A stretch of DNA of 64,000 bases from Aromatoleum toluclasticum ATCC 700605 (lineage in GTDB: Bacteria > Pseudomonadota > Gammaproteobacteria > Burkholderiales > Rhodocyclaceae). A program made the translations under genes and the position numbers. The notes beneath the pieces were generated by a model. That model made no database searches and was not told the origin of the DNA. It worked only from the letters and a program-made list of their open reading frames with translations. Shown here one piece after another: positions 14,774 to 58,998 of the stretch. Each line of letters begins with the position of its first letter. Within the stretch, counting starts at the first letter, position 1. The stretch lies in NCBI RefSeq assembly GCF_000378245.1, contig NZ_KB899513.1, positions 1-64,000 on the forward strand, given 5' to 3'.

Positions 14774-14828
14774 ATTACCAAGATGTAATTCGGGAGACAG
14801 ACTTCTGACACCTTCTGAGTCGCAATAT
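14774..14828 (+). promoter_or_regulatory. Cop/Cus box plus -10 (promoter of 14888 gene)
   Basis: Dyad ATTAC-N6-GTAAT at 14774-14789 (perfect), then 33 nt, then CAATAT at 14823-14828. GACA stands at the position of the second element (GTCA in others). No -35 consensus is present, as expected for an activator-dependent promoter. Confidence 0.75.
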
Positions 14829-14887
14829 GGCGATGTGTCGGTCCGTACCGAGGGCATCGCTTCTATCCTTTCGAAGGAGGTAGTTGT

Positions 14888-15310
14888 ATGAAACCGATTA
14901 TGGTGATGCACGTTGTGTTCGCGTTGACTGCCGCGGCTGCGATGTCTGTTACGTTTGCGGCAGCGCCGACGAATGAGGAGCACCAAAGTCATCATCCCGA
15001 CGTGGCGCAAGTGACACCCGCCACGACAGGGCCCGCTGCCAGCATGCCCGCGCTCCAACAGCGCATGAAGGCGATCCGTTCGGAGAAAGACCCCGCGCGT
15101 CGCATGGCCCTGATGGAAGAGCAGGTGCACGCCATGGAGTCGGCGATGCGTGACATGCCAGCTGAATGCCCGATGGCCGCTGGCAGGATGGGCGGCAAAG
15201 CGCCAGACATGATGCGTGACCACATGCGAATGATGGAAAAGCGCATGGACATGCTGCAGCAGATGATGGAAATGCACATGAAGGCTGAGCCGACGAACCC
15301 CATGAAATAA
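14888..15310 (+). CDS. Small Met/His-rich periplasmic protein (copper/silver binding)
   Basis: 140 residues with signal peptide (cleavage after VTFAA) and an excellent ribosome site, GAAGGAGGTAG. The mature chain has a His cluster (EEHQSHHP), an amphipathic helical region, then a C-terminal Met-rich tract with repeated MRMMEKRMDM and LQQMMEMHMK. Met-rich motifs bind Cu(I)/Ag(I), so a periplasmic sponge or chaperone is likely; this is inference. It is the first gene of the operon that goes on to the channel, oxidase and cupredoxin genes and has its own Cop/Cus box. Confidence 0.75.
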   Translation: MKPIMVMHVVFALTAAAAMSVTFAAAPTNEEHQSHHPDVAQVTPATTGPAASMPALQQRMKAIRSEKDPARRMALMEEQVHAMESAMRDMPAECPMAAGRMGGKAPDMMRDHMRMMEKRMDMLQQMMEMHMKAEPTNPMK

Positions 15311-15372
15311 GAGGAGGTTTGCCTCTGGGAAGGCTCCTCGGGGCTAAGGCCACAAGAAAGAATGAATCCCCG

Positions 15373-15723
15373 ATGAAGAGCGGTTGTTTCGCCATTTCGT
15401 GGCGGAGCGCTGCGGCGCTCGTCTGTCTGGCCTTGCAAGTTCACACAGGCCGAGCCGCGGCGTCGAACGTGTCCTCGCCACCAGAATCCTCCCGCGTGCG
15501 CGACGCCACATTTGCGACAGGCGCGGATGTCGGAATTGAGGTGCCCTCGTTCCGTTCCGTGCTTGAAAACTACCGTTCTTACGGCGCGGACGAGCCCCTT
15601 CGTCCATGGCGTGAGGTCAACGATGAGGTGGGTCGAGAGGAGGGCCGTCACGGTAATCGCGACACTACGCCGATTTCGAACGATGCGGCGCCACAGGGTG
15701 GAAGGACGGAGGATATGAGGTGA
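15373..15723 (+). CDS. Hypothetical secreted protein in copper operon
   Basis: 116 residues from ATG 15373 (MKSGCFAISWRS), with a signal peptide ending near RAAAS. The mature part is hydrophilic, rich in Arg/Glu/Asp, with SFRSVLENYRSYG and LRPWREVNDEVGR, a block seen in small proteins next to CusC-like channels. I do not know its function. Its stop overlaps the next gene's GTG (GTGA), so it is translated with it. Confidence 0.6.
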   Translation: MKSGCFAISWRSAAALVCLALQVHTGRAAASNVSSPPESSRVRDATFATGADVGIEVPSFRSVLENYRSYGADEPLRPWREVNDEVGREEGRHGNRDTTPISNDAAPQGGRTEDMR

Positions 15724-17126
15724 AGGCCGCCACGTCTTTTGTCTTGGTATCCGCTGGCATCCTGACGGGCTGCGCAACGGCCGAAATTGACAGTAACTAC
15801 GAGGCGGTAGCGCGATTCAGTCAGGAACATGCTGGAAGCGTGCCACGATGGTTGCGTAGCGATCCTGATCGCGTCGAGGTGGAGGCGGAAGTCGCTCGCC
15901 TGCTGGCTCAGCCGCTGCGTAAGGATGATGCCGTGCGGATAGCGCTCAACAATAGTCCGGCGTTTCAGGTGGTGCTTGCAGAAGCGGCGGCGGCATCGGC
16001 CGACACTACGCGCTCAGCGCGCGTCCCCGGCCCGGTGTTTAGCTTCGAGCGTCTGCTGCGTTCGGGAGGCGGCGAGCACGAACTCGAGCTTGGCCGAGCG
16101 CTGAGCTTCTCACTGCTTGACGTGTTACTCCTGCCTGCGCGTCTCGACCGCGCCGAGCTGAAACAACGGGAAATCCGGTTGCGGGCCTCGGCGTCGGTCT
16201 TGGCGCTTGTAACTGACGTGCGCCGCGCATGGGTCGAGGCTGTTTCGGCGTTACAGGTCGCCAATTACCACGACCAGGTGGCCAGTGCCACGGCAGCGAC
16301 AGCCGAACTCGCGCGCCGTATGCAGAGCGCGGGCAACTACAGTCGTCTTCAGCAAGCGCGAGAACAAGCGCAGTATGCAGATGCCGTGAGCGTTCAGATT
16401 CGTGCGCGTCAGGATGCGGTACGGACCCGCGAAAACCTCATTCAGTTGATAGGCCTGTCGCCTCACCAGGCGCTTGCCCTTCGACTCCCGGAGCGCTTGC
16501 CGGATTTGCCGGGGGAACCGATCGACGAAGCGACGGTTGCTCGCACGATAGTCGACGAGCGCCTCGACGTCCGTATCGCACGCGCTGCACTTGAAACAGC
16601 CGCGAAAGATCTCGGACTTACGCAGGTGAGCAGCGTAGTCAATGGGATCGAGGTCGCTGGCGTGCGCAACAGCGAGACAGGCACGCGCCCACAGCGTGGT
16701 TTTGAGATCGAATTGCCGTTGCCGATATTCGACTTCGGTGACGCACGCCGCGCGGGAGACCAGGCGCGTTATCTCGCTGCGGTCAACCGTACCGTACAGG
16801 TCGTTCGCAATGCCAGTTCGCAGGTGCGCTCGAACTATGACGGGTATCGCAACGCGTATGACTTGGTACGCCATTACCGCGACGAGGTCATCCCGTTGCG
16901 CAGAAGCATCGCGGACGAGGCGGTTCTCCAATACAACGGGATGTTTATCAGCATTTTCGAGCTTCTCGCGGAGACCCGCAACCAGACGTTAGGCGTGATT
17001 CAGGCCATTCAAGCTGAGCGTGACTTCTGGCTTGCGGACGCCGCACTGAGTGCGACCTTGCTCGGTTACCCGATTGCGCCGACGGTCCTGCGATCAGGCC
17101 CGGCGGTACCTGTCGCTCAACACTAG
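15720..17126 (+). CDS. TolC-family outer-membrane lipoprotein channel (copper oxidase operon)
   Basis: 468 residues from GTG 15720. A lipoprotein signal ends at the LTGC lipobox, so the N-terminal Cys should be acylated. The body has the two tandem OEP repeats of TolC/CusC proteins with long amphipathic helices (for example about residues 170-240 and 370-450). No RND pump or fusion protein is adjacent; the next gene is a multicopper oxidase. Its role may be outer-membrane passage of copper, or a scaffold; the substrate is inferred from context. Confidence 0.85.
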   Translation: MKAATSFVLVSAGILTGCATAEIDSNYEAVARFSQEHAGSVPRWLRSDPDRVEVEAEVARLLAQPLRKDDAVRIALNNSPAFQVVLAEAAAASADTTRSARVPGPVFSFERLLRSGGGEHELELGRALSFSLLDVLLLPARLDRAELKQREIRLRASASVLALVTDVRRAWVEAVSALQVANYHDQVASATAATAELARRMQSAGNYSRLQQAREQAQYADAVSVQIRARQDAVRTRENLIQLIGLSPHQALALRLPERLPDLPGEPIDEATVARTIVDERLDVRIARAALETAAKDLGLTQVSSVVNGIEVAGVRNSETGTRPQRGFEIELPLPIFDFGDARRAGDQARYLAAVNRTVQVVRNASSQVRSNYDGYRNAYDLVRHYRDEVIPLRRSIADEAVLQYNGMFISIFELLAETRNQTLGVIQAIQAERDFWLADAALSATLLGYPIAPTVLRSGPAVPVAQH

Positions 17127-17143
17127 TATGGCGAGCACTGAGA

Positions 17144-18541
17144 ATGCCCAATAGACGACAATTTCTCGCGGGTGCAGGCTTGCTTGCGATCGGTGGGGTG
17201 GGCCGTGCTGCCTTGGCAGCTCTACCCGAGGTGGCCCTACGGCACAGTGCCGACACGGCGATGCCGCTGCAACCCGCCGATGGTGCTTCCTACAACCCAG
17301 TTGTGACCCTCAATGGCTGGACAGCACCATGGCGCATGAACGGCGGCGTCAAGGAGTTCCATCTTGTTGCGGAACCGGTCGAGCGCATCATCGCTCCGGG
17401 GATGACCGCGAGGTTGTGGGGATATAACGGCCAATCGCCGGGCCCCACCATTGAAGTGGTTGAAGGCGATCGGGTGCGCATTTTCGTCACGAACCGTCTC
17501 CCCGAGCATACGACGGTCCACTGGCACGGGCAACGTCTGCCCAACGGCATGGACGGGGTTGGGGGGCTGACGCAACCGCATATTCCTCCTGGCAAGACAT
17601 TCGTCTATGAATTCATCGCCCGCAGGCCGGGTACCTTTATGTACCACCCCCACGCCGACGAGATGGTGCAAATGGCGATGGGGATGATGGGGTTGTGGGT
17701 CACGCATCCGCGTAACCGGCATGCGCTGATCGACCCTGTTGACCGCGATTTTTGCTTCCTCTTGGGCGCGTTCGACGTAGAGCCCGGCAGCTATACCCCC
17801 AAGACCCATACGATGCTTGAATTCAACCTGTTTACGTTCAACAGCCGCGTCTTCCCGGGCATCGATTCGCTCAACGTGCGCCGTCGCGATCGCGTACGGA
17901 TTCGAATTGGCAACCTATCCATGACCAGCCATCCGATCCACCTGCATGGACACGAGTTCGAAGTGACGGGGACGGACGGTGGTCCGATCCCGAAGGAGGC
18001 TCGCTGGCCCGAAGTTACCGTCGACATCGCGGTTGGCCAGATGCGTCAGATCGAGTTCGTCGCTGACGAGGAAGGCGACTGGGCGCTGCATTGTCACAAG
18101 TCGCACCACACGATGAATGCGATGGGTCACGACGTACCGACAATGATTGGAGTCGATCACAGAGGTCTTGTCGAGCGCATCCAGAAACTCGTACCGGACT
18201 ATATGGCGATGGGCGAGCGCGGCATGGCTGAGATGGCCGAAATGGAGATGCCGCTGCCAGACAACACCCTGCCGATGATGACAGGCCAAGCGCAGTTCGG
18301 CGCAGTCGAGATGGGCGGCATGTTTACCGTCGTCAAGGTTCGGCGTGATCAGAGGCCAGGAGACTACTCGAACCCCGGGTGGTACAAACATCGGGCGGGG
18401 CGTGTCGCTCATGAGTGGGCAGGGGGTGTCATGGACCCGGCGCGGACACTCGATGCAGGTGGTCAATCAATGCCGGGGACTACCACCGGCTCTCCCGGAA
18501 CGATCAATGTTCGCCGGCCCAGACGTCACCCGGGGCACTGA
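17144..18541 (+). CDS. Multicopper oxidase (CopA/CueO-like copper oxidase)
   Basis: 465 residues with a Tat signal (RRQFL near residue 4). All copper ligand blocks are present: H126-W-H128-G, H168-P-H170, H263-P-I-H266-L-H268 and H316-C317-H318 ... H322 ... M324, giving one T1 and a trinuclear T2/T3 site. Such enzymes oxidise Cu(I) to Cu(II) in the periplasm. After residue about 330 a Met-rich stretch (MAMGERGMAEMAEMEMP) probably binds Cu(I). The last 35 residues, past GWYKH, look unusual and may reflect a late frameshift. The cupredoxin gene follows. Confidence 0.92.
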   Translation: MPNRRQFLAGAGLLAIGGVGRAALAALPEVALRHSADTAMPLQPADGASYNPVVTLNGWTAPWRMNGGVKEFHLVAEPVERIIAPGMTARLWGYNGQSPGPTIEVVEGDRVRIFVTNRLPEHTTVHWHGQRLPNGMDGVGGLTQPHIPPGKTFVYEFIARRPGTFMYHPHADEMVQMAMGMMGLWVTHPRNRHALIDPVDRDFCFLLGAFDVEPGSYTPKTHTMLEFNLFTFNSRVFPGIDSLNVRRRDRVRIRIGNLSMTSHPIHLHGHEFEVTGTDGGPIPKEARWPEVTVDIAVGQMRQIEFVADEEGDWALHCHKSHHTMNAMGHDVPTMIGVDHRGLVERIQKLVPDYMAMGERGMAEMAEMEMPLPDNTLPMMTGQAQFGAVEMGGMFTVVKVRRDQRPGDYSNPGWYKHRAGRVAHEWAGGVMDPARTLDAGGQSMPGTTTGSPGTINVRRPRRHPGH

Positions 18542-18606
18542 TGCTGGACCACTGCCCACTTCTTCCCGAACTGTATGAAATATTCGATTATGATAATGGA
18601 GAACCA

Positions 18607-19116
18607 ATGAGGTCACGACGTCATTTCTTGGCTACGAGCCTGTTCGCGACAGGCTCACTCTTTGCTGGTCGCGCAGCATTGGCTCACGGAGAAGCGACGC
18701 ACTCCGCCATCAGACCTGCGACGGTTAGTAATGAACAGAAGGACTGGGGGGTGGCCGGCGATCCGCGCGAGGCAAGTCGTACTGTCCCCATTCTAATAAC
18801 GAATGGAATGCGCTTCTCGCCCGATCGCATCGAAGTACGCCTTGGAGAAACGATCCGCTTTGTTCATCGCAACGTCGATAACGTTCTCCACGAAATGGTC
18901 ATCGGGACAAAGTGGGCACTCCATGAGCATGCTGAATTGATGACGAAGTTCCCCGGTATGGAGCATGACGCGCCGTGGATGACTCACGTTGCCCCGGGCG
19001 GGATGAGCGAAATCAATTGGACGTTCAATCGCCCCGGGCGCTTCGAGTTCGCCTGCCTGATCCCTGGTCATTACCAAGCGGGCATGATCGGTACGATCAT
19101 TGTGTCCCAAGCTTGA
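18607..19116 (+). CDS. Periplasmic cupredoxin (plastocyanin/azurin-like)
   Basis: 169 residues; GGAGAA precedes ATG 18607. A Tat-like signal (RSRRHFLAT) is cleaved around ALAHG. The cupredoxin domain has the T1 ligands in order: His in DNVLHEMVIG, then Cys-x4-His in ACLIPGHYQAGM with the axial Met after it. A Met/His loop (HEHAELMTKFPGMEHD) may bind extra copper. It probably shuttles electrons or copper for the oxidase just upstream. Confidence 0.88.
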   Translation: MRSRRHFLATSLFATGSLFAGRAALAHGEATHSAIRPATVSNEQKDWGVAGDPREASRTVPILITNGMRFSPDRIEVRLGETIRFVHRNVDNVLHEMVIGTKWALHEHAELMTKFPGMEHDAPWMTHVAPGGMSEINWTFNRPGRFEFACLIPGHYQAGMIGTIIVSQA

Positions 19117-19136
19117 GCCGATTGATCCATGCAAGC

Positions 19137-19190
19137 TGACAAAAAAGTAATTTTCCAGTCACCTTCTGGTTCAAATCGACTCTTCATACT
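19137..19190 (+). promoter_or_regulatory. Variant Cop/Cus box plus -10 (promoter of cusF-like gene)
   Basis: TGAC-N6-GTAAT at 19137-19151 is a degenerate dyad (the left half is only part-matched), but GTCA follows 6 nt later and CATACT lies exactly 33 nt after GTAAT (19185-19190), as in the other boxes. The preserved spacing is the reason for the call. Confidence 0.5.
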
Positions 19191-19222
19191 GAGTCTCAAT
19201 TAGTCACGACGCAGGATTTGTC

Positions 19223-19576
19223 ATGCTTACCCAACGCAATCTTCCGACCGTTGCGCTCCTCGCAGCACTCGCAATGGCCACTCCGACCTTTGCGTCGAAC
19301 GGCCACGATGCCCATCATGCTGGCGCTGCCGACAGCGGTAGCGAGGTCGTATCGGCGCTGTCTGACGGAACGATCAAGAAGATTGACAAGAGCACCGGCA
19401 AAATTACGATCAGCCACGGTCCGCTCGAAAATCTCGCCATGCCGGCAATGACGATGGTTTTCCGTGCCGCCGATGCATCCATGCTCGATCAGGTCAGAAT
19501 AGGCGACAAGGTCCGCTTCAGGGCCGAGCGCGTTGATGGCGTGTTCACTGTCACAAAGCTTGAAGCCGCAAACTGA
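19223..19576 (+). CDS. cusF: CusF-like periplasmic Cu(I)/Ag(I) chaperone
   Basis: 117 residues with signal peptide (cleaved near TFASN) and an N-terminal His patch (GHDAHHAG). The small beta-barrel has the ligand region SHGPLENLAMPAMTMVF. In E. coli CusF the ligands are a His and two Met in PxMTM plus a Trp that caps the metal; here the Trp position is Met, whereas the CusF domain fused to CusB in this window keeps Trp. It should deliver Cu(I) to the CusCBA pump encoded immediately downstream. Confidence 0.9.
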   Translation: MLTQRNLPTVALLAALAMATPTFASNGHDAHHAGAADSGSEVVSALSDGTIKKIDKSTGKITISHGPLENLAMPAMTMVFRAADASMLDQVRIGDKVRFRAERVDGVFTVTKLEAAN

Positions 19577-19666
19577 CGCCAGCGTCACCGGGAGGGGTGT
19601 AGTCCCGGACGCCGTGGGCACCTGTCATTTACGATTGTATCGGCCTCTATTTTCAAGTCGTTTCGG

Positions 19667-22551: not shown

Positions 22552-22552
22552 C

Positions 22553-32398: not shown

Positions 32399-32453
32399 AT
32401 AACGCATATGTAATCCGCTCGCCATGTTCATGACAGGTGGCGGCGGGTAGTCT
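32399..32453 (+). promoter_or_regulatory. Cop/Cus box plus -10 (promoter of 32532 gene)
   Basis: ATAAC-N6-GTAAT at 32399-32414 (one mismatch), GCCA at the second-element position, and TAGTCT 33 nt after GTAAT (32448-32453). Confidence 0.65.
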
Positions 32454-32531: not shown

Positions 32532-32813
32532 ATGACCTTCAAGACTTTATTGTTCTCCAGCTTACTTGCTGCTACCGCAACGATGGCCATTGGTGCAGAG
32601 CATTCCGTGGATCCGCAGCCCAACGTTGCGGCTGAACAGACGAAAAGCGAAAGCGTCGAGAACCAGGCTCCGCAACCGAAGACGCGGCATGACCATGCAG
32701 CTGAGCGACTGGGGGTTACAGCCAATACGCCGGCAGATCCAGTGTCCGACAAGTCCACAACGCCACGAAGCCAACAGACGAAGCAGCACGATCATATGCG
32801 TGATATGAAGTAG
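32532..32813 (+). CDS. Small secreted His-containing protein (metal-induced)
   Basis: 93 residues with a signal peptide (cleaved after AIGAE). The mature part is hydrophilic and disordered-looking, with TRHDHAAERLGV and a terminal QHDHMRDMK. The protein from 43586-43831 has the same size, layout and HDH ending, and each gene has its own Cop/Cus box. A copper-binding periplasmic peptide is likely from this, but no described family is recognised. Confidence 0.65.
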   Translation: MTFKTLLFSSLLAATATMAIGAEHSVDPQPNVAAEQTKSESVENQAPQPKTRHDHAAERLGVTANTPADPVSDKSTTPRSQQTKQHDHMRDMK

Positions 32814-35898: not shown

Positions 35899-36504
35899 TC
35901 ATGCGCCCGAATCGTCTTGGCCGATCAGCAATCGCGTATCGGACAGGTACTTGTGCTTCGGGATGACCAAGTTCGATGGGGCCGGCACATGCTTGAAGAC
36001 CCGGCCCGCGAGATCGAACTTGGAGCCGTGGCAAGGACAGTAATACCCGCCGGGCCAGGGCTGACCGAGGTCTCGCGGCGATAATTCCGGGCGGAAGGTT
36101 GGAACGCAGCCCAGGTGCGTACAAAGGCCGATGGCGACGAAAACGTCGGGCTTGATCGAGCGCGTCGCGTTCTGGCAATAGGGTGGCTGTTGCAGCCGCT
36201 GCGAGGCGGGGTCGAGCAATAACTCATAGATACGTTCGAGCCCTTCGATCATGTCGGGCGTGCGCCGCAAAATCCATATCGGCTGGCCGCGCCATTCGAC
36301 GGTGGTCATCTCGCCGTCGCCAAGTTTCGCGATGTTCGCTTCCACGGGCGCGCCGAGGGCCCGCGCTCGGTCGCTCGGCGTCAGACTGACGATGAATGGA
36401 ACCGCACCCGCCGCCACCGCGGCACCTCCCGCTGCCGAAGTGGCGACCAGTAAGCGGCGGCGCTGTGGGTCGGGGGGCGTGTCAGTGTCGTGCTCTGATC
36501 GCAT
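35899..36504 (-). CDS. Rieske iron-sulfur protein (ubiquinol-cytochrome c reductase type), solitary
   Basis: 201 residues. The N terminus has a twin-arginine-like QRRRLLVATSA and a TM anchor. The [2Fe-2S] boxes are C128-T-H-L-G-C133 and C156-P-C-H159-G-S, with the disulfide cysteines in place, as in PetA. The cytochrome b and c1 genes that normally follow petA are absent; instead the heme-barrel gene comes next. It may be a spare copy or serve another electron path. Confidence 0.88.
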   Translation of the reverse strand: MRSEHDTDTPPDPQRRRLLVATSAAGGAAVAAGAVPFIVSLTPSDRARALGAPVEANIAKLGDGEMTTVEWRGQPIWILRRTPDMIEGLERIYELLLDPASQRLQQPPYCQNATRSIKPDVFVAIGLCTHLGCVPTFRPELSPRDLGQPWPGGYYCPCHGSKFDLAGRVFKHVPAPSNLVIPKHKYLSDTRLLIGQDDSGA

Positions 36505-36940
36505 CGTCTCATCTCCCGTGCACTACGCAGCGAACCACTCTACGGTTGGCTGTTCGCGAAACATGCCCACCTGCCAAGCGAAGCTGTCGTTCTTGCGCGT
36601 GGGCAAAGGCCGTCCTGAACGGACTCTTCTATGTGACTACATCATGAAACGGTCGAGCTGACGGTGGAGTGACGACAAGGTTACGTTTCCGTCAGCTCCG
36701 CGCCATCAATTACACAAGCTTGCGAAAATGTCCGCGGCATGTACGGTTGGAATGGCTGAATTACAACTAGCATATAGAAGCAGTCGTAAGCACGACAAAG
36801 GCGGGTAGAACACCGCCGCAATCAAAGACCAGGACGCGAAGACCAATGTGCCGCGATTTCCCCTCCACGCCGTATGCACATGCGATGGAGTGATGCACAT
36901 GCGGCCATGCGTTATCTCTCAAATGGCAGTGAGGCGCCCG
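36505..36940. other. Non-coding stretch upstream of the Rieske gene
   Basis: No supported gene. It should hold the leftward promoter for the Rieske gene; no Cop/Cus box with correct spacing is found. Confidence 0.4.
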
Positions 36941-37458: not shown

Positions 37459-37513
37459 ATTGTAGGAGTCGGATCTTAACGCGGCAATGAAGACAGCATT
37501 ACATCGCAGTTAT
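37459..37513 (-). promoter_or_regulatory. Cop/Cus box plus -10, leftward
   Basis: On the minus strand ATAAC-N6-GTAAT (37513-37498), TTCA 6 nt later, and TACAAT exactly 33 nt after GTAAT (37464-37459). The -10 is close to consensus, and the spacing equals that of the plus-strand boxes. Confidence 0.65.
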
Positions 37514-37620: not shown

Positions 37621-37675
37621 ATTACAGAGTTGTAATTGAAGCGTCATGCGCGGGACAGCATGGGCGGGGTAAGCT
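37621..37675 (+). promoter_or_regulatory. Cop/Cus box plus -10 (promoter of the P-type ATPase gene)
   Basis: Perfect ATTAC-N6-GTAAT at 37621-37636, GTCA 6 nt later, TAAGCT after 33 nt (37670-37675). Confidence 0.75.
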
Positions 37676-37736: not shown

Positions 37737-40274
<2,538 letters not shown>

Positions 40275-43459: not shown

Positions 43460-43514
43460 GTTACGAATGTGTAATATCCGCGTCATGCTCTCGACAGCCT
43501 ATGTGGAGCACACT
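43460..43514 (+). promoter_or_regulatory. Cop/Cus box plus -10 (promoter of 43586 gene)
   Basis: GTTAC-N6-GTAAT at 43460-43475 (one mismatch), GTCA 6 nt later, and CACACT at the 33-nt position (43509-43514). The -10 is weak but the other elements fit. Confidence 0.6.
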
Positions 43515-45222: not shown

Positions 45223-45277
45223 ATGACAGGAATGTAATTGTTAAGTCATGCCAATGTCAGATGCTCGCTGCTACAAT
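45223..45277 (+). promoter_or_regulatory. Cop/Cus box plus -10 (promoter of czcE-copK pair 1)
   Basis: ATGAC-N6-GTAAT at 45223-45238 (one mismatch), GTCA 6 nt later, TACAAT exactly 33 nt after GTAAT (45272-45277). Confidence 0.7.
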
Positions 45278-45329
45278 CAGGTTACGGTCGCTCGATAAGG
45301 AGCATCTTGATTGGTCCTGGGGAATGATT

Positions 45330-45722
45330 ATGAACCGCAATATCTGCCGTGCCACTGCTATCTCGGCGCTGCTGTTCACAACGGCCTCGTCGGCAATTGC
45401 ACACACTGACTATTCAGAAGCTGGCACTTCGCACTGGGTCGAGGGCGTTCGAGGATCAGCGAGCGAACCCACAGAGAGACAGAAGGCCCCTTATGGGTAT
45501 GAATCAACCGGAGTTCCTGAGCGCATCTTAGTCGTAGATAAGAACACCCGGCACATCAATGTCGTCCAGCTAGAGACTGTTTCGATCCGTTTCGGAGGAA
45601 AAGTGGTTAATTGGACATTCGATGCATATCCACGGAGAAATTTCTCCTTGTCGAATATTTTGCCTGGAGTAGACGGCGTGACTGTGTACGTGGATGAGAG
45701 CCCAATGTATCGGGGGCGTTGA
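45330..45722 (+). CDS. czcE: CzcE-family periplasmic copper-binding protein (copy 1)
   Basis: 130 residues from ATG 45330 (an ATG at 45324 is also in frame). Signal peptide cleaved near AIAHTD. The mature domain has the CzcE pattern: NTRHINVVQLETVSIRFGGK, VVNWTFDAYPRRNFSLSNIL and a C-terminal VTVYVDESPMYRG. CzcE of Cupriavidus binds Cu as a dimer in the periplasm. It is followed by copK and resembles copy 2 (46353-46745) most in the C-terminal half. Confidence 0.85.
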   Translation: MNRNICRATAISALLFTTASSAIAHTDYSEAGTSHWVEGVRGSASEPTERQKAPYGYESTGVPERILVVDKNTRHINVVQLETVSIRFGGKVVNWTFDAYPRRNFSLSNILPGVDGVTVYVDESPMYRGR

Positions 45723-45826
45723 TCAAGTGTGCTTCTTGCAGATAGCACACCGGTTTTACAACCAAAAGGCGTCGTGCAGTAAAGGTTAGTTTTTAAGTTC
45801 TACCACTTAACTGTCAGGAGTCAATC

Positions 45827-46108
45827 ATGCTTACGAAAGCAATCGCCGCAGCCGCATCCGTGATCATCGCCACCTCGGCATTCGCAGTGGACCGAGGAAA
45901 TGTCGAGAAAGCCTATGAGTTGAAAGATGGCTCCACCGTCTACGTCTTTAAGGACGGCAAGATGGCGATGGAGAACAAAGTTGGGCAAGTTGTTACGATG
46001 AAGGAAGGCCATGCGATGGAAACAAAGGATGGAAAAAAAATAATGATGAAGGGTAACGAAATCTGGCGTCTAGAGAACGAGCTGCATCGCGAGCATCAGA
46101 CAAACTGA
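45827..46108 (+). CDS. copK: CopK-family periplasmic copper-binding protein (copy 1)
   Basis: 93 residues; CAGGAG upstream. Signal peptide ends at AFAVD. The mature part, NVEKAYELKDGSTVYVFKDG then KMAMENKVGQ, MKEGHAMETKDGKKIMMKG and NEIWRL, matches Cupriavidus CopK, which binds Cu(I) through methionines. Paralogs follow at 46862 and 47379. It is the second gene after the box at 45223. Confidence 0.9.
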   Translation: MLTKAIAAAASVIIATSAFAVDRGNVEKAYELKDGSTVYVFKDGKMAMENKVGQVVTMKEGHAMETKDGKKIMMKGNEIWRLENELHREHQTN

Positions 46109-46138
46109 ATTGTTTGCGACCGTCGCGTGGCGACGATT

Positions 46139-46176
46139 GATCGGCCTGCGCGCTGTAACGGCGGAGCAGGCCGATC
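46139..46176 (+). terminator. Stem-loop after copK copy 1
   Basis: GATCGGCCTGC (46139-46149) pairs perfectly with GCAGGCCGATC (46166-46176) around a 16-nt loop, 30 bp after the copK stop. There is no run of T after it, so termination could be inefficient or the hairpin may protect the mRNA end. Confidence 0.5.
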
Positions 46177-46240
46177 TGCTGTCGGTGGTGCGTAATCCCT
46201 GCTTAAACAACGTTGTTGCTTTCCGCAAGGTTGCAGGAGG

Positions 46241-46295
46241 ATGAGTAGGAAGTAATCGGAAAGTCATTCTGCCGTAAGGCGCTCCAGACTAATAT
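46241..46295 (+). promoter_or_regulatory. Variant Cop/Cus box plus -10 (promoter of czcE-copK pair 2)
   Basis: ATGAG-N6-GTAAT at 46241-46256 (two mismatches in the left half), GTCA 6 nt later and TAATAT exactly 33 nt after GTAAT (46290-46295). Confidence 0.6.
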
Positions 46296-46352
46296 CTACT
46301 CGTGGTGTAGCGAAGTCGAGCGATAGAGCCAAATACTGCGGGAGAGTGAAGG

Positions 46353-46745
46353 ATGCAAATTACTAAATCTAGCGTAGCTTATGCATCAATACTGCTGTTT
46401 GGAACAGCGAGCGCACTTGCTGGTGAGCAGTATTCCGCGCCGAGCGAAACGCAAGTTGGAGCTTTAATCCGGGTTGCCGCAAGCGCCGCTCATGCACGCC
46501 AGGCTGCCCGCTATGGATACGCATCGCTGGCGACGGCGGAGCGGAGCATAACCATTGACAATCAGACCCGCCATATCAACGTTGTGAGAATGGAAACGAT
46601 TGCAATACGCGTCGGAGAAAAAACTGTTACGTGGACCTTCGATACCTTGGGAACCTCTAGTTTTCCGCTGTCGGAAATCATCCCTGGCACGGAGCAGGTA
46701 ACCGTATATGTTGACGAGAATCCGATGTACCGAGGAGGTCAGTGA
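46353..46745 (+). CDS. czcE: CzcE-family periplasmic copper-binding protein (copy 2)
   Basis: 130 residues, signal peptide cleaved near ALAGE. CzcE features: QTRHINVVRMETIAIRVGEK, TVTWTFDTLGTSSFPLSEII and VTVYVDENPMYRGG. It is followed by copK copy 2 after 116 bp, the same order as in the pair just before, which points to an ancestral tandem duplication that has since diverged. Confidence 0.87.
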   Translation: MQITKSSVAYASILLFGTASALAGEQYSAPSETQVGALIRVAASAAHARQAARYGYASLATAERSITIDNQTRHINVVRMETIAIRVGEKTVTWTFDTLGTSSFPLSEIIPGTEQVTVYVDENPMYRGGQ

Positions 46746-46861
46746 GGGCAGGGCATCGGGAGTGGGGCGTAAACAACGGCGTTGTGCAGAACAAAGGTGT
46801 CAAGTACGGCGCGCACAGCCCCAACATTCTTGATTCACATATCCTCTACGAGGAGTTTGTT

Positions 46862-47143
46862 ATGCTTAGTAAGCTCGCAATTGTTGCTGCATCGTTCCTC
46901 GTTACCGCGTCTGCGTTGGCCGTAGATGAGGGGAACGTGACGAAGTCGTATCCGTTGAAGGATGGATCAACGGTTTATGTATTCAAGGATGGAAAGATGG
47001 CCATGGAGGACAAATTGGGGCGCCTTGTTACCATGAAGGAAGGACACACGATGGAAACAACGGACGGTCAGAGGATCATGATGAAGGGCAATGAAATCTG
47101 GCGTCTCGAGCGCGAGTTGCATCGTGATCGTGGAGGTAGTTGA
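46862..47143 (+). CDS. copK: CopK-family periplasmic copper-binding protein (copy 2)
   Basis: 93 residues from ATG 46862; GAGGAG upstream. Signal peptide ends at ALAVD. The family core is present (NVTKSYPLKDGSTVYVFKDG, then KMAMEDKLGR, MKEGHTMETTDGQRIMMKG, NEIWRL). The methionines in MAM, EGHTM and IMM are kept, so Cu(I) binding is likely. Confidence 0.9.
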   Translation: MLSKLAIVAASFLVTASALAVDEGNVTKSYPLKDGSTVYVFKDGKMAMEDKLGRLVTMKEGHTMETTDGQRIMMKGNEIWRLERELHRDRGGS

Positions 47144-47378
47144 CTCTCCCTTGAATTGTTGGGAGTGCCCGACTTCTTGTGGTGCGGTTGCTGATACTAG
47201 GTTTTCTCAGTCTGCGCCGAGGGGAGGTTGATACGTCCGTGCCAAGTTTTGTTGGAAAATCTGAACTGTGAACTTATGGCTGGCATGAAGCACGCGGAGC
47301 GTGACTAATGCGGAGAATATGCCTGTTGATCTCCCGCTAAACTGTCAGCCACAGGTTGCGAATTTAAAGGAGTAAATC

Positions 47379-47660
47379 ATGCTCAAAAAACTCATTGTCG
47401 CAGCAGCCTCTGTCTTGGTCGCGACGTCGGCCCTTGCAGTTGACGAGAGTAACGTCGAAAAATCGTATGTAATGAAGGATGGATCGACGGTTTATGTTTT
47501 CAAGGATGGCAAGATGGCCATGGAGAACAAATTCGGCCGGGTTGAAAGGATGGCGGAGGGGCACGTGATGGAGACTAAGGATGGCCAGAAGATCATGATG
47601 AAGGGCGATGAAATCTGGCGTCTTGAAAGGGCCTTGCATCCAAATCGCGGCGGTCGCTGA
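47379..47660 (+). CDS. copK: CopK-family periplasmic copper-binding protein (copy 3)
   Basis: 93 residues; AAAGGAG upstream. Signal peptide ends at ALAVD. Core NVEKSYVMKDGSTVYVFKDG, KMAMENKFGR, MAEGHVMETKDGQKIMMKG; here ERMAEGHVM replaces TMKEGHxM. Unlike copies 1 and 2 it has no czcE in front and no clear box of its own, so it may be read from the preceding promoter. A terminator hairpin follows at 47686. Confidence 0.9.
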   Translation: MLKKLIVAAASVLVATSALAVDESNVEKSYVMKDGSTVYVFKDGKMAMENKFGRVERMAEGHVMETKDGQKIMMKGDEIWRLERALHPNRGGR

Positions 47661-47685
47661 CGCTCCCATTACAAGTGTTCACCTG

Positions 47686-48521: not shown

Positions 48522-48884
48522 CTAGTCCGAGGGTGATGAGCTGCGTCTCGGGATTGGTGCGCTGCAGTCCTTGAAATTCACGTAGACCTTGTCGCCGACC
48601 TGTAATTGCGAGTCGGCGGGCAACTTGGCGGCGCGCGCATGCGAGTGTCCATGGCTCAAAAGCGCGATCATCACATACTGATCGCTGCCTTCCGTGCCCG
48701 ACGCCACGGTCCTGCAGTCATAAAACGCGGGCCGCTTCAGACTTTTCGCGGGTCCGATCTCGACAACGGTTCCTTTGCGCCACCCGTCCGCCTCGGAGTA
48801 TTTCCCTTCGAGCACGGTGGGGCTCGCACATCCGCTCAGCGCTACAAGGGCCACAATAGCGGTAGCAACCATAATTGTCTTCAT
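48522..48884 (-). CDS. Small lipoprotein, copy 1
   Basis: 120 residues with a lipobox (VALSGC). The mature part runs EGKYSEADGWRKGTVVEIGP, AFYDCRTVASGTEGSDQYVM, HGHSHARAAKLP and VGDKVYVNFKDCSAP, with the His motif GHSHAR and two Cys. It is nearly identical to copy 2 at 50979-51329 except for the signal and tail. The box at 49030-49045 with TACAGT on the minus strand should drive it. Function is unknown; the HGHSH motif suggests a metal. Confidence 0.72.
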   Translation of the reverse strand: MKTIMVATAIVALVALSGCASPTVLEGKYSEADGWRKGTVVEIGPAKSLKRPAFYDCRTVASGTEGSDQYVMIALLSHGHSHARAAKLPADSQLQVGDKVYVNFKDCSAPIPRRSSSPSD

Positions 48885-48990
48885 GGGATGACCTCCAGAA
48901 ACGGCAGAGGGAATGTCGGGCAGGATGAATCTGCTTCAGCCATCTTGGGGGTACGCAATCATGGCATCTGTGAAACCGCGTACTGGACTC

Positions 48991-49045
48991 ACTGTAGAAG
49001 ACTTTCCCTGTCGAATTGCAGACAGCCCGATTACGAATTCGTAAT
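48991..49045 (-). promoter_or_regulatory. Cop/Cus box plus -10, leftward (lipoprotein copy 1)
   Basis: Perfect dyad ATTAC-GAATTC-GTAAT at 49030-49045; on the minus strand TACAGT lies exactly 33 nt on (48996-48991). The surrounding 100 bp closely match the region before the regulator gene at 58.9-59.0 kb. Confidence 0.75.
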
Positions 49046-49079
49046 GTCGGCAGGCTGCGTGTCTTGAGCTCATTCGCGC

Positions 49080-49115
49080 ATGACGATATGGGCGGTCGAC
49101 GACCTGCCGATTGCG
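49080..49115 (+). pseudogene. Remnant of a second CusR-type regulator gene (5' end only)
   Basis: ATG at 49080 begins M-T-I-W-A-V-D-D-L-P-I-A, matching the start of the regulator at 59033 ([10 protein letters not shown]). About 36 bp in, the similarity ends where an ankyrin fragment begins on the other strand. The upstream bases (ATTCGCGC before the ATG) and the box are also shared. This looks like a regulator gene lost through recombination. Confidence 0.55.
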
Positions 49116-51329: not shown

Positions 51330-51395
51330 TGGGTCACCTTTTTGATCACATGGGAAGGCCACCCGCAGCGACGTGCTGCAGGCAGCCGGACGGCG

Positions 51396-51782: not shown

Positions 51783-51823
51783 GTTTTCTCCTTTCAGGAT
51801 TCGATTGTGTAGGCGCATCAGCG

Positions 51824-54943
<3,120 letters not shown>

Positions 54944-54958
54944 CGGTCGGGCTCCCCG

Positions 54959-56071
54959 TCAGCGGATCTGGTTGATCAGGGTGGCCGCGTTTGTGGCGAC
55001 GCGCTCCCCGGCCGCGAGGCCCGACGTCACCGCCACATTCGCCCCGTCGAGCGGCGCGGTCGTGACGGTGCGGGGCTCGAAGCGCTCCGGCGCGGTCTTG
55101 ACCCACACGATGGTCTGGTTCGCCGGGTTCTTCAGCACCGATCCCGCGGGCACGCTGACGCCCTGCAGTGTGCTGCGCGTTTGCACGAACACCTCGACCG
55201 GTTGCCCGACAGCGAAACGCGCCAAGGAATCGCCCGCCGCACCGAAAGCGAGCGGCAGCGCCTGCTCGCGCAGACTGCGCGCCGCGCCGAGAAAGTCGAG
55301 TCTCACGCGTTGCTCGCCGACCGCGAGGCTCGCGCCTGCGACATCGATGGCGGTGTCGGCATCGTAGGCCAGCGCCTCGACGCGCAGCCGTTTCGGATCG
55401 ACGATCTCGAACACCAGTTCGCGCGCGTCGACGACTTGCCCGGCGACCGCGTTGCTCGATGCGATCACACCCGCGACGGGCGCCACGAGCGCATCGCGAT
55501 TGCTGAGCCCCGCACCCACCGCCGTCGCGCGGGCCGCGAGACTCGCGAGTTCGCTCTCGGCCGCTTCGATCTCCTTGCGCGGCACCGTGTCGGCGAGCTC
55601 CTTCAGCCGCGATACGCGCTTTTCCGCGAGCACTTTGGCAGCCCGCAATTCGGCGAGCTGGGCCATCTGGTTCGAGCGCTCGATCTGTCCCGCTGATGGC
55701 ACGACGTACGCGAGCACCTCGCCCTTCTTCACCGCCTGTCCGATCCCGGGCAAGCCGCGCGGTCCGGCTTCGAGGCGGCCGGCGACCAGCGCCTGCACCT
55801 TTCCGCCCGCGTTGGGGTCCATCACCACTTTGCCAGCCAGCGTCACTGTGCGCGGCAGGTTGCCGGCTTCCGTGACCAGCGTGCGCACGCCGATCTGGCG
55901 TTGTGCCGGCTTGGGCAGGAATACGCTGCCGTCGGGCAAGCGTCGCGGACCGTTGCCTCCGACGGGCGCGGAGCCTTCGTCGCCGTGATCGTGCCCGTCG
56001 CCAGCGAATGCGTTCCACGATGCACTTGCCGTAACAAGGCACAGCATGACCAACAGAATTCCCGGTTTCAT
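54959..56071 (-). CDS. CzcB-like membrane fusion protein (operon 2)
   Basis: 370 residues from ATG 56071, overlapping the preceding gene's stop (ATGA). Signal peptide (ending NAFAGDG), His-rich start (GDGHDHGDEG), then RRLPDGSVFLPKPAQRQIGV and VMDPNAGGKVQALVAGRLEA, a helical hairpin and final GERVATNAATLINQIR. It is paralogous to 27656-28810. Confidence 0.92.
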   Translation of the reverse strand: MKPGILLVMLCLVTASASWNAFAGDGHDHGDEGSAPVGGNGPRRLPDGSVFLPKPAQRQIGVRTLVTEAGNLPRTVTLAGKVVMDPNAGGKVQALVAGRLEAGPRGLPGIGQAVKKGEVLAYVVPSAGQIERSNQMAQLAELRAAKVLAEKRVSRLKELADTVPRKEIEAAESELASLAARATAVGAGLSNRDALVAPVAGVIASSNAVAGQVVDARELVFEIVDPKRLRVEALAYDADTAIDVAGASLAVGEQRVRLDFLGAARSLREQALPLAFGAAGDSLARFAVGQPVEVFVQTRSTLQGVSVPAGSVLKNPANQTIVWVKTAPERFEPRTVTTAPLDGANVAVTSGLAAGERVATNAATLINQIR

Positions 56072-56652
56072 GCGACACCTCCGGCCGAACGGGTGCGGGC
56101 GTTTCCCTTGCGCAGCGCGGCCCAGCCGACGAGTCCAAGAACGAGAACGCCGGCGCCCACCCATCCCGCGTAGGGTTTCACGCCTGGTCCGGCCGATTCG
56201 GCGTGCACCTCGGTGGCCTCTTCATGCAGATCCAGCTCGCCGGCAAGGAGGTCGGTGTCTTGTCCGGCCACGACCGTGGCGGTCACGGACACGACGCCCG
56301 GTTTGAGTGCATCCTGCAGCGTGGCTTCGAACTCGCCGTCGGCATGTGGCTCGACGGAAATCGCCTTGCCGTCGAGTTGCAGCTCCAGCGTCGCGTCCTT
56401 GACCGGGCTGTTGTCGGCGAAGCGGTCGAGATAGAGGGTGATGTTCTCGCCATCGACCACGCCGACCAGCTCGAAGAGCTCCGAAACGGCGGTGAATCGC
56501 GGTAGCGCCGGGCCGGCCATGGGCGCCGGGGCGTCACCGTGGTCGTGGCCTTCGCCGGCCAAGGCCTGAGGCGTGAAGCCCGCAAGGACGGCGGCAAGAC
56601 TCCACGCCGCCAGGGTAGGGGAAGGTTTCATGTTCGGGTTCCTGGTGTTCAT
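56068..56652 (-). CDS. Membrane-anchored periplasmic protein of Czc-type operon (operon 2)
   Basis: 194 residues from ATG 56652, overlapping the channel gene stop. Signal peptide (ending ALAGEG), GEGHDHGDAPAP, Ig-like domain (FELVGVVDGENITLYLDRFA, then ATLQDALKPGVVSVTATVVAG), C-terminal TM (WVGAGVLVLGLVGWAAL) and basic tail. Same layout as 27063-27632 and the same operon position. Confidence 0.8.
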   Translation of the reverse strand: MNTRNPNMKPSPTLAAWSLAAVLAGFTPQALAGEGHDHGDAPAPMAGPALPRFTAVSELFELVGVVDGENITLYLDRFADNSPVKDATLELQLDGKAISVEPHADGEFEATLQDALKPGVVSVTATVVAGQDTDLLAGELDLHEEATEVHAESAGPGVKPYAGWVGAGVLVLGLVGWAALRKGNARTRSAGGVA

Positions 56653-57911
56653 TCGGGAAGAAGGCCCATGGCCTGCCGCAGCGCGGATACGGCCGCGGCC
56701 AGTTCGATGCGGGTGCGCGCCACCTGACGCTCGGCTTCGGCGGCCTCGAGTTCGATGCGCAGGCGGGTCGGCAGATCGGTTTCGCCGAGGCGGAACGCCT
56801 TCTGGAAGAAGCCGCGCGACTCGCGGGCCAACTGCGCGCGCCGCTCGGCAGAGGCGACCAGGGTGCGCGCCGATTCGACCCGGACGCGCGCCGTATCCAC
56901 TTCGGCCGTCAGGCGTTCGCGTTCCAGCCTCAGCTGGGTTTCGGCTTCGATCGCCTCGGCACTGGCGCTGGCAACGCGGGCGCGGTTGCGGGTATCGGAC
57001 CCGAACGGAATGCGTACGCCGATCGTCACCGTCTGTTGCCAGGATTCGCCGGATGCGCCACGCTCGCGCGTCGTCGCCAGACGCAACTCGGGATTGGCGC
57101 GGCCCTGAATCCCGGCGAGGTTCATGCTGCGTTGGGCAAGCTCCGCCCGATCGCGTAGTTCGGCGACAGCAGGATGCCCCACTTCTGGTGCAGAGGGGGT
57201 GGCAGGGACGGGCTCTGCTTCGGCCACGGCGAGCCCTTCGCCAGCAAGCGCAGGTGCCATGCCTATCAGGGCGCGCAACTGCTGTTCCGCACCCGCGAGC
57301 GCGCCGCTGGCTTCGGCGAGCGCCGCTTCTGCGGTCGCGAGCGCTCCGTCCGCCTGATGCTGGTCGGCCCGTGCGAGATCGCCGGCCCGAACCCGTTTCG
57401 ATACATCCGAGGTGAGTTCGCGGGCGCTGGCAAGCCGCTCGCGTGCGACCAGGACATCGATCCGCGCGCGCTGCCAATCCCAGTACGCGGCCCGAACCGC
57501 AGCGGCCGTGCGCAGTTGTGCCGCAAGCGTGCGGCTCGTACTCGTGCGCACTTCGGCATCGGCAAGGGCCGCGGTCGATGCACGTTCGCCGGGCAACCAC
57601 AGCGGCGCCGCGAGACCGATCTCGTATTCACGGCTGCCGTCGTTGCGGTGGATTTGGTCGGTCTTGCCCGATACTTCGAGTGCCAGCGGTTCGGCCGACC
57701 AGTTGTCGGCGCTCTCACGTCGCGCCTGCGCAGCCGTCCGGCGCATGTCAAACGACTGGGCTTCGGGTTGACGCGCCCACGCAGCGTTGAATGCCTGTTG
57801 GAGCGTTGTTACGACCGGTGATGCGGGGGGCGTGGCTTGTGCCCACGCCCCACTGGCCGCGAGTCCGAGCAGCAGCCCCGGCAGCCAGTTGATGCGAATT
57901 CTTCGAAACAT
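56649..57911 (-). CDS. CzcC-like outer-membrane efflux channel (operon 2)
   Basis: 420 residues from ATG 57911 (MFRRIRINW), signal cleaved near AWAQ. OEP repeats include FNAAWARQPEAQSFDMRRTA, TDQIHRNDGSREYEIGLAAP and TIGVRIPFGSDTRNRARVAS. It ends MGLLPE and overlaps the next start by ATGA. It is paralogous to 25822-27066 and less so to the other two channels. Confidence 0.9.
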   Translation of the reverse strand: MFRRIRINWLPGLLLGLAASGAWAQATPPASPVVTTLQQAFNAAWARQPEAQSFDMRRTAAQARRESADNWSAEPLALEVSGKTDQIHRNDGSREYEIGLAAPLWLPGERASTAALADAEVRTSTSRTLAAQLRTAAAVRAAYWDWQRARIDVLVARERLASARELTSDVSKRVRAGDLARADQHQADGALATAEAALAEASGALAGAEQQLRALIGMAPALAGEGLAVAEAEPVPATPSAPEVGHPAVAELRDRAELAQRSMNLAGIQGRANPELRLATTRERGASGESWQQTVTIGVRIPFGSDTRNRARVASASAEAIEAETQLRLERERLTAEVDTARVRVESARTLVASAERRAQLARESRGFFQKAFRLGETDLPTRLRIELEAAEAERQVARTRIELAAAVSALRQAMGLLPE

Positions 57912-57987
57912 CCAATTCTCCGTTGATGACGAGACACGGAAAATCGGCAAGGCGCGATCAGCTCGATCGCAATGGACGCGCGGCAAT

Positions 57988-58002
57988 ACCGTTCATAACG
58001 GT
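57988..58002. repeat. Perfect inverted repeat between czcI-like and channel genes
   Basis: ACCGTT-CAT-AACGGT, 6-bp arms around 3 nt, 77 bp before the channel start. It could be an operator or a short mRNA hairpin that tunes expression between czcI and the channel gene. Confidence 0.4.
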
Positions 58003-58042
58003 GAAACTGCCGGAAAGAGAATGAAAGCGACCACCCTGCCGA

Positions 58043-58399
58043 TCAGGCAGGGAGGCCCCATTTCGGACGTTCGGGCTCGGAGGGATGTCCCGGGAGCAAC
58101 CCCATCGGAGTGGAGGCGATGGCGAGGGAAGTCAGGATGTCGGTCGATGACGCTCCCACATCGCTCGGCAGTGCGGTGCAAGTCGCCGCCTGGCAGAAGC
58201 TGCAATCGAAATCGGTTCCTGCTGCTTTCGATCCGGGCTCGTCGCCAGCCGCGGCCTGATGCTGGTGGTCATGATGACCCAGGTGGTTCGCCGCCGCCCC
58301 CGACTCGTGCTGGCAGTAGGCGCTCACCGCGGCCCAACCCAGTTGGAGCGGCAGGAACACCATGAAGAGAATCGCAAGCCAGCGGCGCATGCGGCGCAT
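58043..58399 (-). CDS. czcI: CzcI-like/DUF2946 small secreted protein heading operon 2
   Basis: 118 residues. N-terminal signal (RWLAILFMVFLPLQLGWAA), SAYCQHESGAAANH as in CzcI proteins, His cluster (HLGHHDHQHQ) and CSFCQAATCTAL with three Cys. CzcI precedes czcC in Cupriavidus and modulates pump expression. An in-frame ATG three codons downstream is an alternative. The operon 1 relative lacks such a gene. Confidence 0.72.
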   Translation of the reverse strand: MRRMRRWLAILFMVFLPLQLGWAAVSAYCQHESGAAANHLGHHDHQHQAAAGDEPGSKAAGTDFDCSFCQAATCTALPSDVGASSTDILTSLAIASTPMGLLPGHPSEPERPKWGLPA

Positions 58400-58526
58400 T
58401 GTAGCGGCAAGAGGAAAGAAAATGAAAATGGGGACTGGACTGCTGAGGACTCACGGCGAGACTGCGTGGGGCCATGCGATGTCACGTGTTGCGTGGCATC
58501 CGGCCCGCGCGCATATCTCCACCGCG

Positions 58527-58865
58527 TCAATTGTCACCATAGAGCTCGTCCATGCGTGCCCGCTCCTCGGGCGTCATGCTCAGCAGCTCGTTGATCACCT
58601 CTTCGCGGGTTTTGCCCGGTCCGACGTCGCGGGAAGGCGGGGGCAGGCCGCGCAGCAGGTACGAGTAGCTGCCATCGGCTTTCGCCTCTTCGAGTTCCTT
58701 CAGCACTTCGGTGCGCGTCTTGGTGCTTGTGGAATGGTCGGGATGAAAGGTGAAACCGGCTTCATTGTTGGCGGGGTGCCACAGCGAACCGGCAAGTGCC
58801 GCGGTCGGCGCGGCGAGGACGGCGGCGAGCAAGGGCACGAGGGTGGCGGTACGGATCTTGGACAT
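58527..58865 (-). CDS. DUF4148 small secreted protein
   Basis: 112 residues with signal peptide (cleaved near ALAGS). The DUF4148 block is plain: KTRTEVLKELEEAKADG, RGLPPPSRDVGPGKTREEV and SMTPEERARMDELYGDN. DUF4148 proteins are frequent in beta-proteobacteria and often induced by metals. It has a perfect Cop/Cus box in front and lies opposite the regulator gene. Confidence 0.85.
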   Translation of the reverse strand: MSKIRTATLVPLLAAVLAAPTAALAGSLWHPANNEAGFTFHPDHSTSTKTRTEVLKELEEAKADGSYSYLLRGLPPPSRDVGPGKTREEVINELLSMTPEERARMDELYGDN

Positions 58866-58943
58866 GATGGGCTTCCTTTCGTCGATGCAGGGGACGGTCC
58901 GGCTCGGGCAACGTCCGTTGCAGTCCGGCCGGACACGGGACGT

Positions 58944-58998
58944 ACTGTAGAAAACCGTCCACGTCGAATCGCGAACAGCCCGATTACGAATTCGTAAT
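58944..58998 (-). promoter_or_regulatory. Cop/Cus box plus -10, leftward (DUF4148 gene), shared with regulator start
   Basis: Perfect dyad ATTAC-GAATTC-GTAAT at 58983-58998; on the minus strand TACAGT follows at exactly 33 nt (58949-58944). Rightward, the regulator ATG is 35 bp away with GATAAT at 59021-59026, so the same box may also act in autoregulation of that gene. Confidence 0.75.

What the first reader, a model, noticed from the sequence alone, without database searches (positions are those of the whole stretch)
14774..58998. A ten-promoter copper regulon with exact spacing (ATTAC-N6-GTAAT, 33 nt, -10)
Sites with their -10: 14774 (CAATAT), 19137 (CATACT, weak), 32399 (TAGTCT), 37498 minus (TACAAT), 37621 (TAAGCT), 43460 (CACACT), 45223 (TACAAT), 46241 (TAATAT), 49030 minus (TACAGT), 58983 minus (TACAGT). 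In every case the -10 starts 34 nt after GTAAT; most have GTCA 6 nt after GTAAT, an 11-bp repeat of the half-site. No -35 is recognisable. They precede the small periplasmic metal genes, the cusF-like gene, the ATPase and the DUF4148/lipoprotein genes. The two CusR-type regulators are the obvious candidates to bind.
Basis: partly seen in the sequence, partly recalled or inferred. Interest (0 to 1): 0.85.

Follow-up and report, generated by a model that had tools for sequence, protein, structure and literature searches.

The report
Copper-response promoters of known CopR type
Ten (probably eleven) metal-resistance promoters in this window share one rigid switch design, a known binding site for copper- and metal-sensing regulators placed at a fixed distance from the start of the gene; the design is real and widespread but already largely described in relatives.

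Summary
Four exact ATTAC-N6-GTAAT dyads lie in the window (0.01 expected). All 8 dyads with at most one mismatch have [TC]A...T after 33 nt, each in one orientation only, and there is no -35 above background. The spacing held on dyads outside the window (11 of 12 that carry the repeat), on the side facing away from the regulator gene at regulator loci elsewhere (19 of 25; 10 of 15), and by sequence at E. coli cusC, hiuH, pcoE, pcoA, silC, silE and C. metallidurans copA1.

I read the site as four half-sites at 11-bp steps (first inverted, three direct; 37 bp), then 12 bp, then the -10: a Type II activator array for TIGR01387 regulators. This kind is in print: AgrR box (PMC7380067), a 37-bp motif upstream of C. 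metallidurans cop start sites (PMC7563307), CzcR3 box (PMC8469834). So: a new member of a known kind. "Copper" and "the two regulators" are inferences: the genome holds five such regulators, and CzcR-type regulators read the same box. Less certain and possibly new: on the regulator side the -10 often sits near 22, sometimes predicting a leaderless regulator mRNA.

The parts
14774..14828 (+). Promoter: dyad ATTACCAAGATGTAAT, half-sites at +6 (GACA) and +17 (GACA), -10 CAATAT; precedes a 140-aa small His/Met-rich protein (ATG 14888)
19136..19190 (+). Promoter, weak dyad (2 mismatches), GTCA at +6, -10 CATACT; precedes cusF-like gene 19223-19576
32399..32453 (+). Promoter, dyad 1 mismatch, -10 TAGTCT; precedes 93-aa small protein (32532-32813)
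36641..36695 (-). Weak (13.5 bits)
37459..37513 (-). Promoter, dyad 1 mismatch, TTCA at +6, -10 TACAAT; divergent from the ATPase promoter, no convincing gene found downstream
37621..37675 (+). Promoter: exact dyad, GTCA, GACA, -10 TAAGCT; precedes YHS/HMBD P1B-type ATPase 37737-40274
43460..43514 (+). Promoter: dyad 1 mismatch, GTCA, GACA, -10 CACACT; precedes 81-aa small protein (ATG 43586)
45223..45277 (+). Promoter: dyad 1 mismatch, GTCA, GTCA, -10 TACAAT; precedes CzcE-like (ORF 45261-45722, true start probably later) and CopK (45827-46108)
46241..46295 (+). Promoter: dyad 2 mismatches, GTCA, GTAA, -10 TAATAT; precedes CzcE-like 46353 and CopK 46742
48991..49045 (-). Promoter: exact dyad ATTACGAATTCGTAAT, GTCT, GACA, -10 TACAGT; precedes 120-aa lipoprotein-like gene 48522-48884 (by eye, no family hit); lies in a 103-bp stretch 80% like the 58983 region
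58944..58998 (-). Promoter: exact dyad, GTTC, GACG, -10 TACAGT; precedes DUF4148 gene 58527-58865
58983..59035 (+). Same dyad read towards the regulator gene: N22, GATAAT (59021-59026), 6 nt, ATG at 59033: predicted autoregulated, leaderless promoter
   Evidence: same layout at two paralogues (L070, L072) and on Thauera pTha01
14030..14710 (-). Response regulator, TIGR01387 367 bits
12618..14177 (-). Sensor kinase with CusS sensor domain, TIGR01386 502 bits
59033..59719 (+). Response regulator, TIGR01387 308 bits
59722..61053 (+). Sensor kinase, TIGR01386 350 bits

Best explanation
These are Type II (class II) activator-dependent promoters of heavy-metal response regulators of the CopR/CusR/AgrR/CzcR kind (TIGR01387). 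The operator is four half-sites on one helical face at 11-bp steps: one inverted (ATTAC), three direct (GTAAT, GTCAT-like, G[AT]CA-like). The first two make the published 16-bp inverted repeat; the third and fourth flank and overlap the place where a -35 element would be. The -10 starts 12 bp after the last half-site. Inferred working: the sensor kinase detects periplasmic metal (most likely copper for most of these genes), the regulator binds the dyad first and then fills the direct repeats, and the promoter-proximal subunits stand in for the missing -35 by touching sigma region 4, as PhoB does at a pho box (recalled). Shown here: sequence architecture, spacing, lack of -35, regulator family, recurrence across genomes. 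Inferred: binding, order of filling, the sigma contact, and copper as the signal.
For: Dyads far beyond chance. Spacing of 33 tested on material not used to set it: own genome outside the window; the side facing away from the regulator gene at 25 named loci that have a dyad, out of 80 examined: 19 of 25, mean 0.93 per offset; second set, 15 with a dyad of 30 examined: 10 of 15, mean 0.44. Same layout by sequence at E. coli cusC, hiuH, pcoE, silC, silE and, without the repeat, pcoA (cusC). C. metallidurans copA1: the start site at 191,243, 5'-RACE validated and seen only with copper (PMC7563307), falls 8 nt past the predicted -10 TACTCT. AgrR work: footprints, contact maps and mutants show that both the inverted repeat and the promoter-proximal direct repeat matter, at promoters with no or poor -35 (PMC7380067). 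No -35 here. E. coli phoA has GTCAT-N6-GTCA-N11-TATAGT, nearly the promoter-proximal half of this site. Five regulators over cut-off in the genome, each with an exact dyad upstream (5 of 5). The C-terminal domain of the 59033 regulator matches the solved PcoR domain 2jzy (E 6.6e-35).
Against: No binding or start-site data for this organism. Half the listed sites lack an exact GTCA at +6. Six of 25 and 5 of 15 dyads lack the -10 at 33. By my definition no dyad lies upstream in 55 of the first 80 regulator loci (many from distant phyla) and 15 of the 30 in the second set. Other dyads in the reference stretches show neither repeat nor -10 (for example L109 8544 and 9981, L110 8482). AgrR's own site at czcI2 lies far upstream, at -122.5. 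In P. putida two of four CopR footprints lie much further from the mapped start sites, and the authors saw no sigma-70 -10/-35 (PMC12428095). The dyad alone is near background in many genomes of the order. Model R1 gave no hit on the E. coli cus region and one weak hit on pMOL30. E. coli pstS did not show the phoA spacing under the same rule.
Confidence: 0.85

Rival explanations
1. The same boxes are read by a zinc/cadmium (CzcR-type) or mixed set of regulators, so this is a multi-metal regulon rather than a copper regulon.
For: P. putida CzcR3 footprints show aTTAC-N6-GTAAT (PMC8469834); P. aeruginosa CopR, CusR and CzcR share the GTAAT half-site and targets (PMC11195947). AgrR binds cop and czc promoters (PMC7380067). 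The HME-RND pump 51824-54943 is named only CusA/CzcA family, and the ATPase passes both the copper (TIGR01511) and the cadmium (TIGR01512) model cut-offs.
Against: Downstream genes and neighbours include CusF, CopK (three in the window), a multicopper oxidase by Pfam and a CusS sensor domain; the ATPase scores higher on the copper model (569 against 381 bits).
Confidence: 0.3
2. The promoters use an alternative (ECF-type) sigma factor, the conserved blocks being its elements.
For: No -35; the P. putida authors suggested unidentified sigma factors; many C. metallidurans metal determinants have promoters called non-RpoD (PMC9045368).
Against: The -10s are degenerate TANNNT and the upstream block is a dyad plus 11-bp direct repeats, the form of OmpR-family operators. 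The same layout is found at E. coli cusC. Apart from CnrH, the ten ECF factors of CH34 were reported as not needed for upregulation of operons responding to metal shock (PMC7563307).
Confidence: 0.05
3. Chance alignment of AT-rich intergenic words picked by eye.
Against:: the spacing peaks at 33 on material not used to set it.
Confidence: 0.02

Closest known systems
AgrR box of Cupriavidus metallidurans (PMC7380067; abstract, section 18, Discussion and passages seen)
   Same: 16-bp inverted repeat ATKACANNNNTGTMAT, extra in-phase direct half-sites, no or poor -35, Type II position, autoregulation
   Different: The paper describes the inverted repeat plus a direct half-site up and/or downstream at some operators; here three direct half-sites and a strict 33-nt gap recur across many promoters
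37-bp motif of the pMOL30 cop cluster (PMC7563307; passages seen)
   Same: Found around 50 bp upstream of all cop primary start sites except copG, copK and copO, and proposed as a CopR1 site; my array is also 37 bp long, and copA1 fits
   Different: The passages seen give no half-site anatomy or fixed gap to the -10; its Figure 7 could not be viewed, so identity of the two motifs is inferred
E. coli CusR/HprR box CATTACAAAATTGTAATG (PMC9302797; passages seen)
   Same: Same dyad; hiuH -10 at 33 and, on the hprR side, TATGAT at 22
   Different: Few targets known in E. coli
CzcR3 box of P. putida (PMC8469834; passages seen)
   Same: aTTAC-N6-GTAAT by footprint
   Different: Cadmium/zinc response; its distance to the -10 was not tested here
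PhoB pho box
   Same: GTCAT-N6-GTCA then 11 nt then -10 at phoA
   Different: No inverted upstream half; different regulator; 12 nt here

Membership tests
CopR/CusR/AgrR-type operator | 16-bp inverted repeat ATTAC-N6-GTAAT | tested here: met
   4 exact, 8 with at most one mismatch
[quoted passage not shown]
   at least 3 of 4 GTCA in 9 of 10 sites; invariant G of the next half-site in 10 of 10
CopR/CusR/AgrR-type operator | Type II position, -10 present, -35 poor | tested here: met
   by sequence only:
CopR/CusR/AgrR-type operator | Regulator of TIGR01387 nearby | tested here: met
CopR/CusR/AgrR-type operator | Regulator binds the site | not testable with these tools
   needs footprinting
Copper regulon | Induced by copper through its sensor kinase | not testable with these tools
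   gene content suggests it; CzcR-type regulators share the box
CzcR (zinc/cadmium) regulon | Box ATTAC/GAAAC-N6-GTAAT | tested here: inconclusive
   box alone does not separate CopR from CzcR
PhoB pho regulon | PhoB regulator | tested here: not met
   the two window regulators score 177 and 190 bits on the PhoB model, cut-off 296

The most novel reading that the evidence does not exclude
One dyad drives two divergent promoters in different registers: the resistance gene at a rigid 33 nt (four half-sites) and the regulator gene 11 bp closer, at about 22 nt (dyad alone). In some lineages, including this genome, the regulator mRNA is then leaderless, its ATG lying where transcription should start. 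The register would set two thresholds from one site: autoregulation by one dimer, resistance genes only when a second dimer fills the direct repeats.
Probability: 0.25. Interest if true: 0.5.

Novelty: new member of a known kind. Interest (0 to 1): 0.3.

Why it matters
It gives a precise, testable grammar (dyad, two direct half-sites at 11 bp, 33 nt to the -10) for finding metal regulons in unannotated genomes and for building biosensors. It may also help to explain why -35 elements, and sometimes -10s, were not recognised at copper promoters. The discovery itself is mostly anticipated by work in Cupriavidus and E. coli.

Tried and rejected
Rejected: a brand-new motif (published boxes match). 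Rejected: chance. Weakened: a universal 22-nt spacing on the regulator side. It was strong in the first set (9 of 25). The same exact pattern failed in the second set (1 of 15). A looser definition made afterwards (at least 4 of 6 TATAAT with A2 and T6, 22 +/- 1) gave 9 of 25 and 5 of 15 (P 2.6e-5 and 0.002). A second mode at 27 exists (4 of 25 and 2 of 15; copR1 of CH34).

R1 on the E. coli cus region found nothing although the layout is there by script, so the model is lineage-biased. The PMC7763554 passage search found no motif. The E. coli promoter preprint PMC12132413 and PMC8249747 gave no spacing in the passages seen.

Limits: the P values treat sites as independent, and some loci are close relatives. 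In one search the tool scored 150 of 1290 first-look candidates, so its count is a lower bound. Loci L078-L105 and L192-L220 came and were not analysed beyond those tables. For the second regulator set, one search listed 54 matches: I tested the 30 outside the window's genome and outside one distant family (f71); left out were 5 of the own genome and 19 of f71, of which nine were looked at (2 had a dyad by the same rule, neither with the -10 at 33).
Full report
CHECK. The dyad ATTAC-N6-GTAAT occurs exactly four times in the window against 0.01 expected, and 17 times with up to two mismatches against 6.3 expected. All ten listed sites have [TC]A...T starting 33 nt after GTAAT; over offsets 0-69 the mean is 0.4 of 10, with 5 at offset 8 (inside the repeat) and 4 at offset 19. 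Within the window, 8 of 8 dyads with at most one mismatch have the -10 at 33, each in one orientation only. Elsewhere in the genome, 37 dyads read in both orientations (places, letters fetched) split as 11 with repeat and -10, 1 repeat only, 5 -10 only and 57 neither (Fisher P 1.2e-8). Among the 12 repeat-bearing ones the -10 profile peaks at 33 (11) and the next highest offset, 35, has 4. There is no -35: mean best match to TTGACA 2.3 at the sites and 2.31 at random places.

ANATOMY. The ten sites align over 55 columns without a gap; GTAAT, the G of the half-site at +17, A2 and T6 of the -10 and two bases of the distal half are invariant. Read as half-sites: ATTAC (inverted), GTAAT, GTCAT-like at +6, G[AT]CA-like at +17, then 12 nt, then the -10. 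[quoted passage not shown] From the first to the last is 37 bp.

GENOME AND GENUS. A sequence-only model of the ten sites found 30 matches at E up to 10 in the own genome: the ten, one more in the window (36649, minus), and 19 elsewhere, all at E < 1, on contigs C1, C2, C5, C7, C10 and C14. Genes after them include DUF4148-like and other small proteins with signal-like starts (read by eye, not family-searched). All 17 genomes of the genus that were searched, the own one included, have matches at E <= 0.1; five have 11-24 (own 24), the other twelve 2-5. The own genome has exactly five regulators over the TIGR01387 cut-off, each with an exact dyad upstream.

GENES. By Pfam and NCBIfam the window holds CusF, two CzcE, three CopK, HME-RND pumps, a multicopper oxidase, a YHS/HMBD P1B ATPase and a CusS-type kinase. 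These point to copper; the box alone does not. The host is probably a Thauera or near kin: the best plasmid match is Thauera aminoaromatica pTha01, 88% identity over 68% of the 17-kb query.

OTHER ORGANISMS. Of 80 named regulator loci, 25 have a dyad close upstream; 19 of 25 have the -10 at 33 on the side facing away from the regulator gene (mean 0.93 per offset; with the stricter TA...T, 12 of 25). A second set, 15 with a dyad of 30 loci, gave 10 of 15 (mean 0.44; TA...T 8 of 15). I did not annotate the genes on that side. Known promoters show the same: E. coli cusC TAAAGT, hiuH TATCCT, pcoE TATAAT, pcoA TATTGT (no GTMA repeat), silC TAAAGT, silE TATAAT; P. fluorescens plasmid TAGCAT and TAGGGT; C. 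metallidurans copA TACTCT (cusC). For copA1 the published start site, 5'-RACE validated and seen only with copper (PMC7563307), lies 8 nt past that -10. I saw no start-site coordinates for the others.

REGULATOR SIDE. At three regulator genes of this genome the same dyad faces the regulator with N22, GATAAT, 6 nt, ATG, so a start at the usual distance would be at the ATG; the other two regulator genes do not show it. pTha01 has the same. In the first set 9 of 25 have [TC]A...T at 22 (P 1.2e-7); in the second set 1 of 15. With a looser definition, 9 of 25 and 5 of 15 at 22 +/- 1. A further mode at 27 includes CH34 copR1, whose start site at 191,346 (PMC9045368) fits TAGACT at 27. So the regulator side is less rigid and the 11-bp register shift is a hypothesis, not a rule. 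AgrR footprints at copA2-copR2, -74 to -40 for one gene and -60 to -26 for the other (PMC7380067), fit an offset of that order.

KNOWN OR NEW. The 16-bp box, the extra direct half-sites, the poor -35 and the Type II position are described for AgrR with footprints and mutants. A 37-bp motif around 50 bp upstream of all cop primary start sites but three is described for CH34. CusR/HprR and CzcR3 boxes match. My searches and the passages read showed no paper stating the four-half-site, 33-nt rule across the family, nor the 33/22 asymmetry or leaderless metal regulators of this family; they cover an open-access library only, most listed papers were seen as listings, and figures could not be seen. 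PMC7563307 does report leaderless mRNAs for some other regulators (arsR, ompR, ohrR, zniR). That PhoB contacts sigma region 4 at pho boxes is recalled; phoA spacing was measured here.

VERDICT. Observation confirmed; interpretation right in kind, too narrow in scope and too sure about copper. New member of a known kind.

Noticed in passing
window 58983-59035; L070 and L072; L111: The regulator ATG follows GATAAT by 6 nt at three paralogous loci and on pTha01: predicted leaderless regulator mRNA.
   Followed up: partly
window 36641-36695 (-): Extra weak site of the same form before a Rieske-type gene (35899-36504), which could tie a redox protein to the metal response.
   Followed up: partly
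window 48982-49083: About 103 bp 80% like the DUF4148/regulator region at 58935-59036, but no regulator family hit follows on the plus side: a duplicated promoter region now in front of a lipoprotein-like gene.
   Followed up: partly
window 45261-47660: Three CopK genes and two CzcE-like genes within 2.4 kb.
   Followed up: no
L106, L109 (E. coli cusR and silR sides): Both regulator sides carry TAGAAT at +37, a register not at 22, 27 or 33; read by eye from the rows.
   Followed up: no
PMC12428095: P. putida cop promoters were reported without recognisable -10/-35 but with CGCACA near -10; CACACT is a -10 variant at 33 in this genome (for example 43460), so the two may be the same thing.
   Followed up: no
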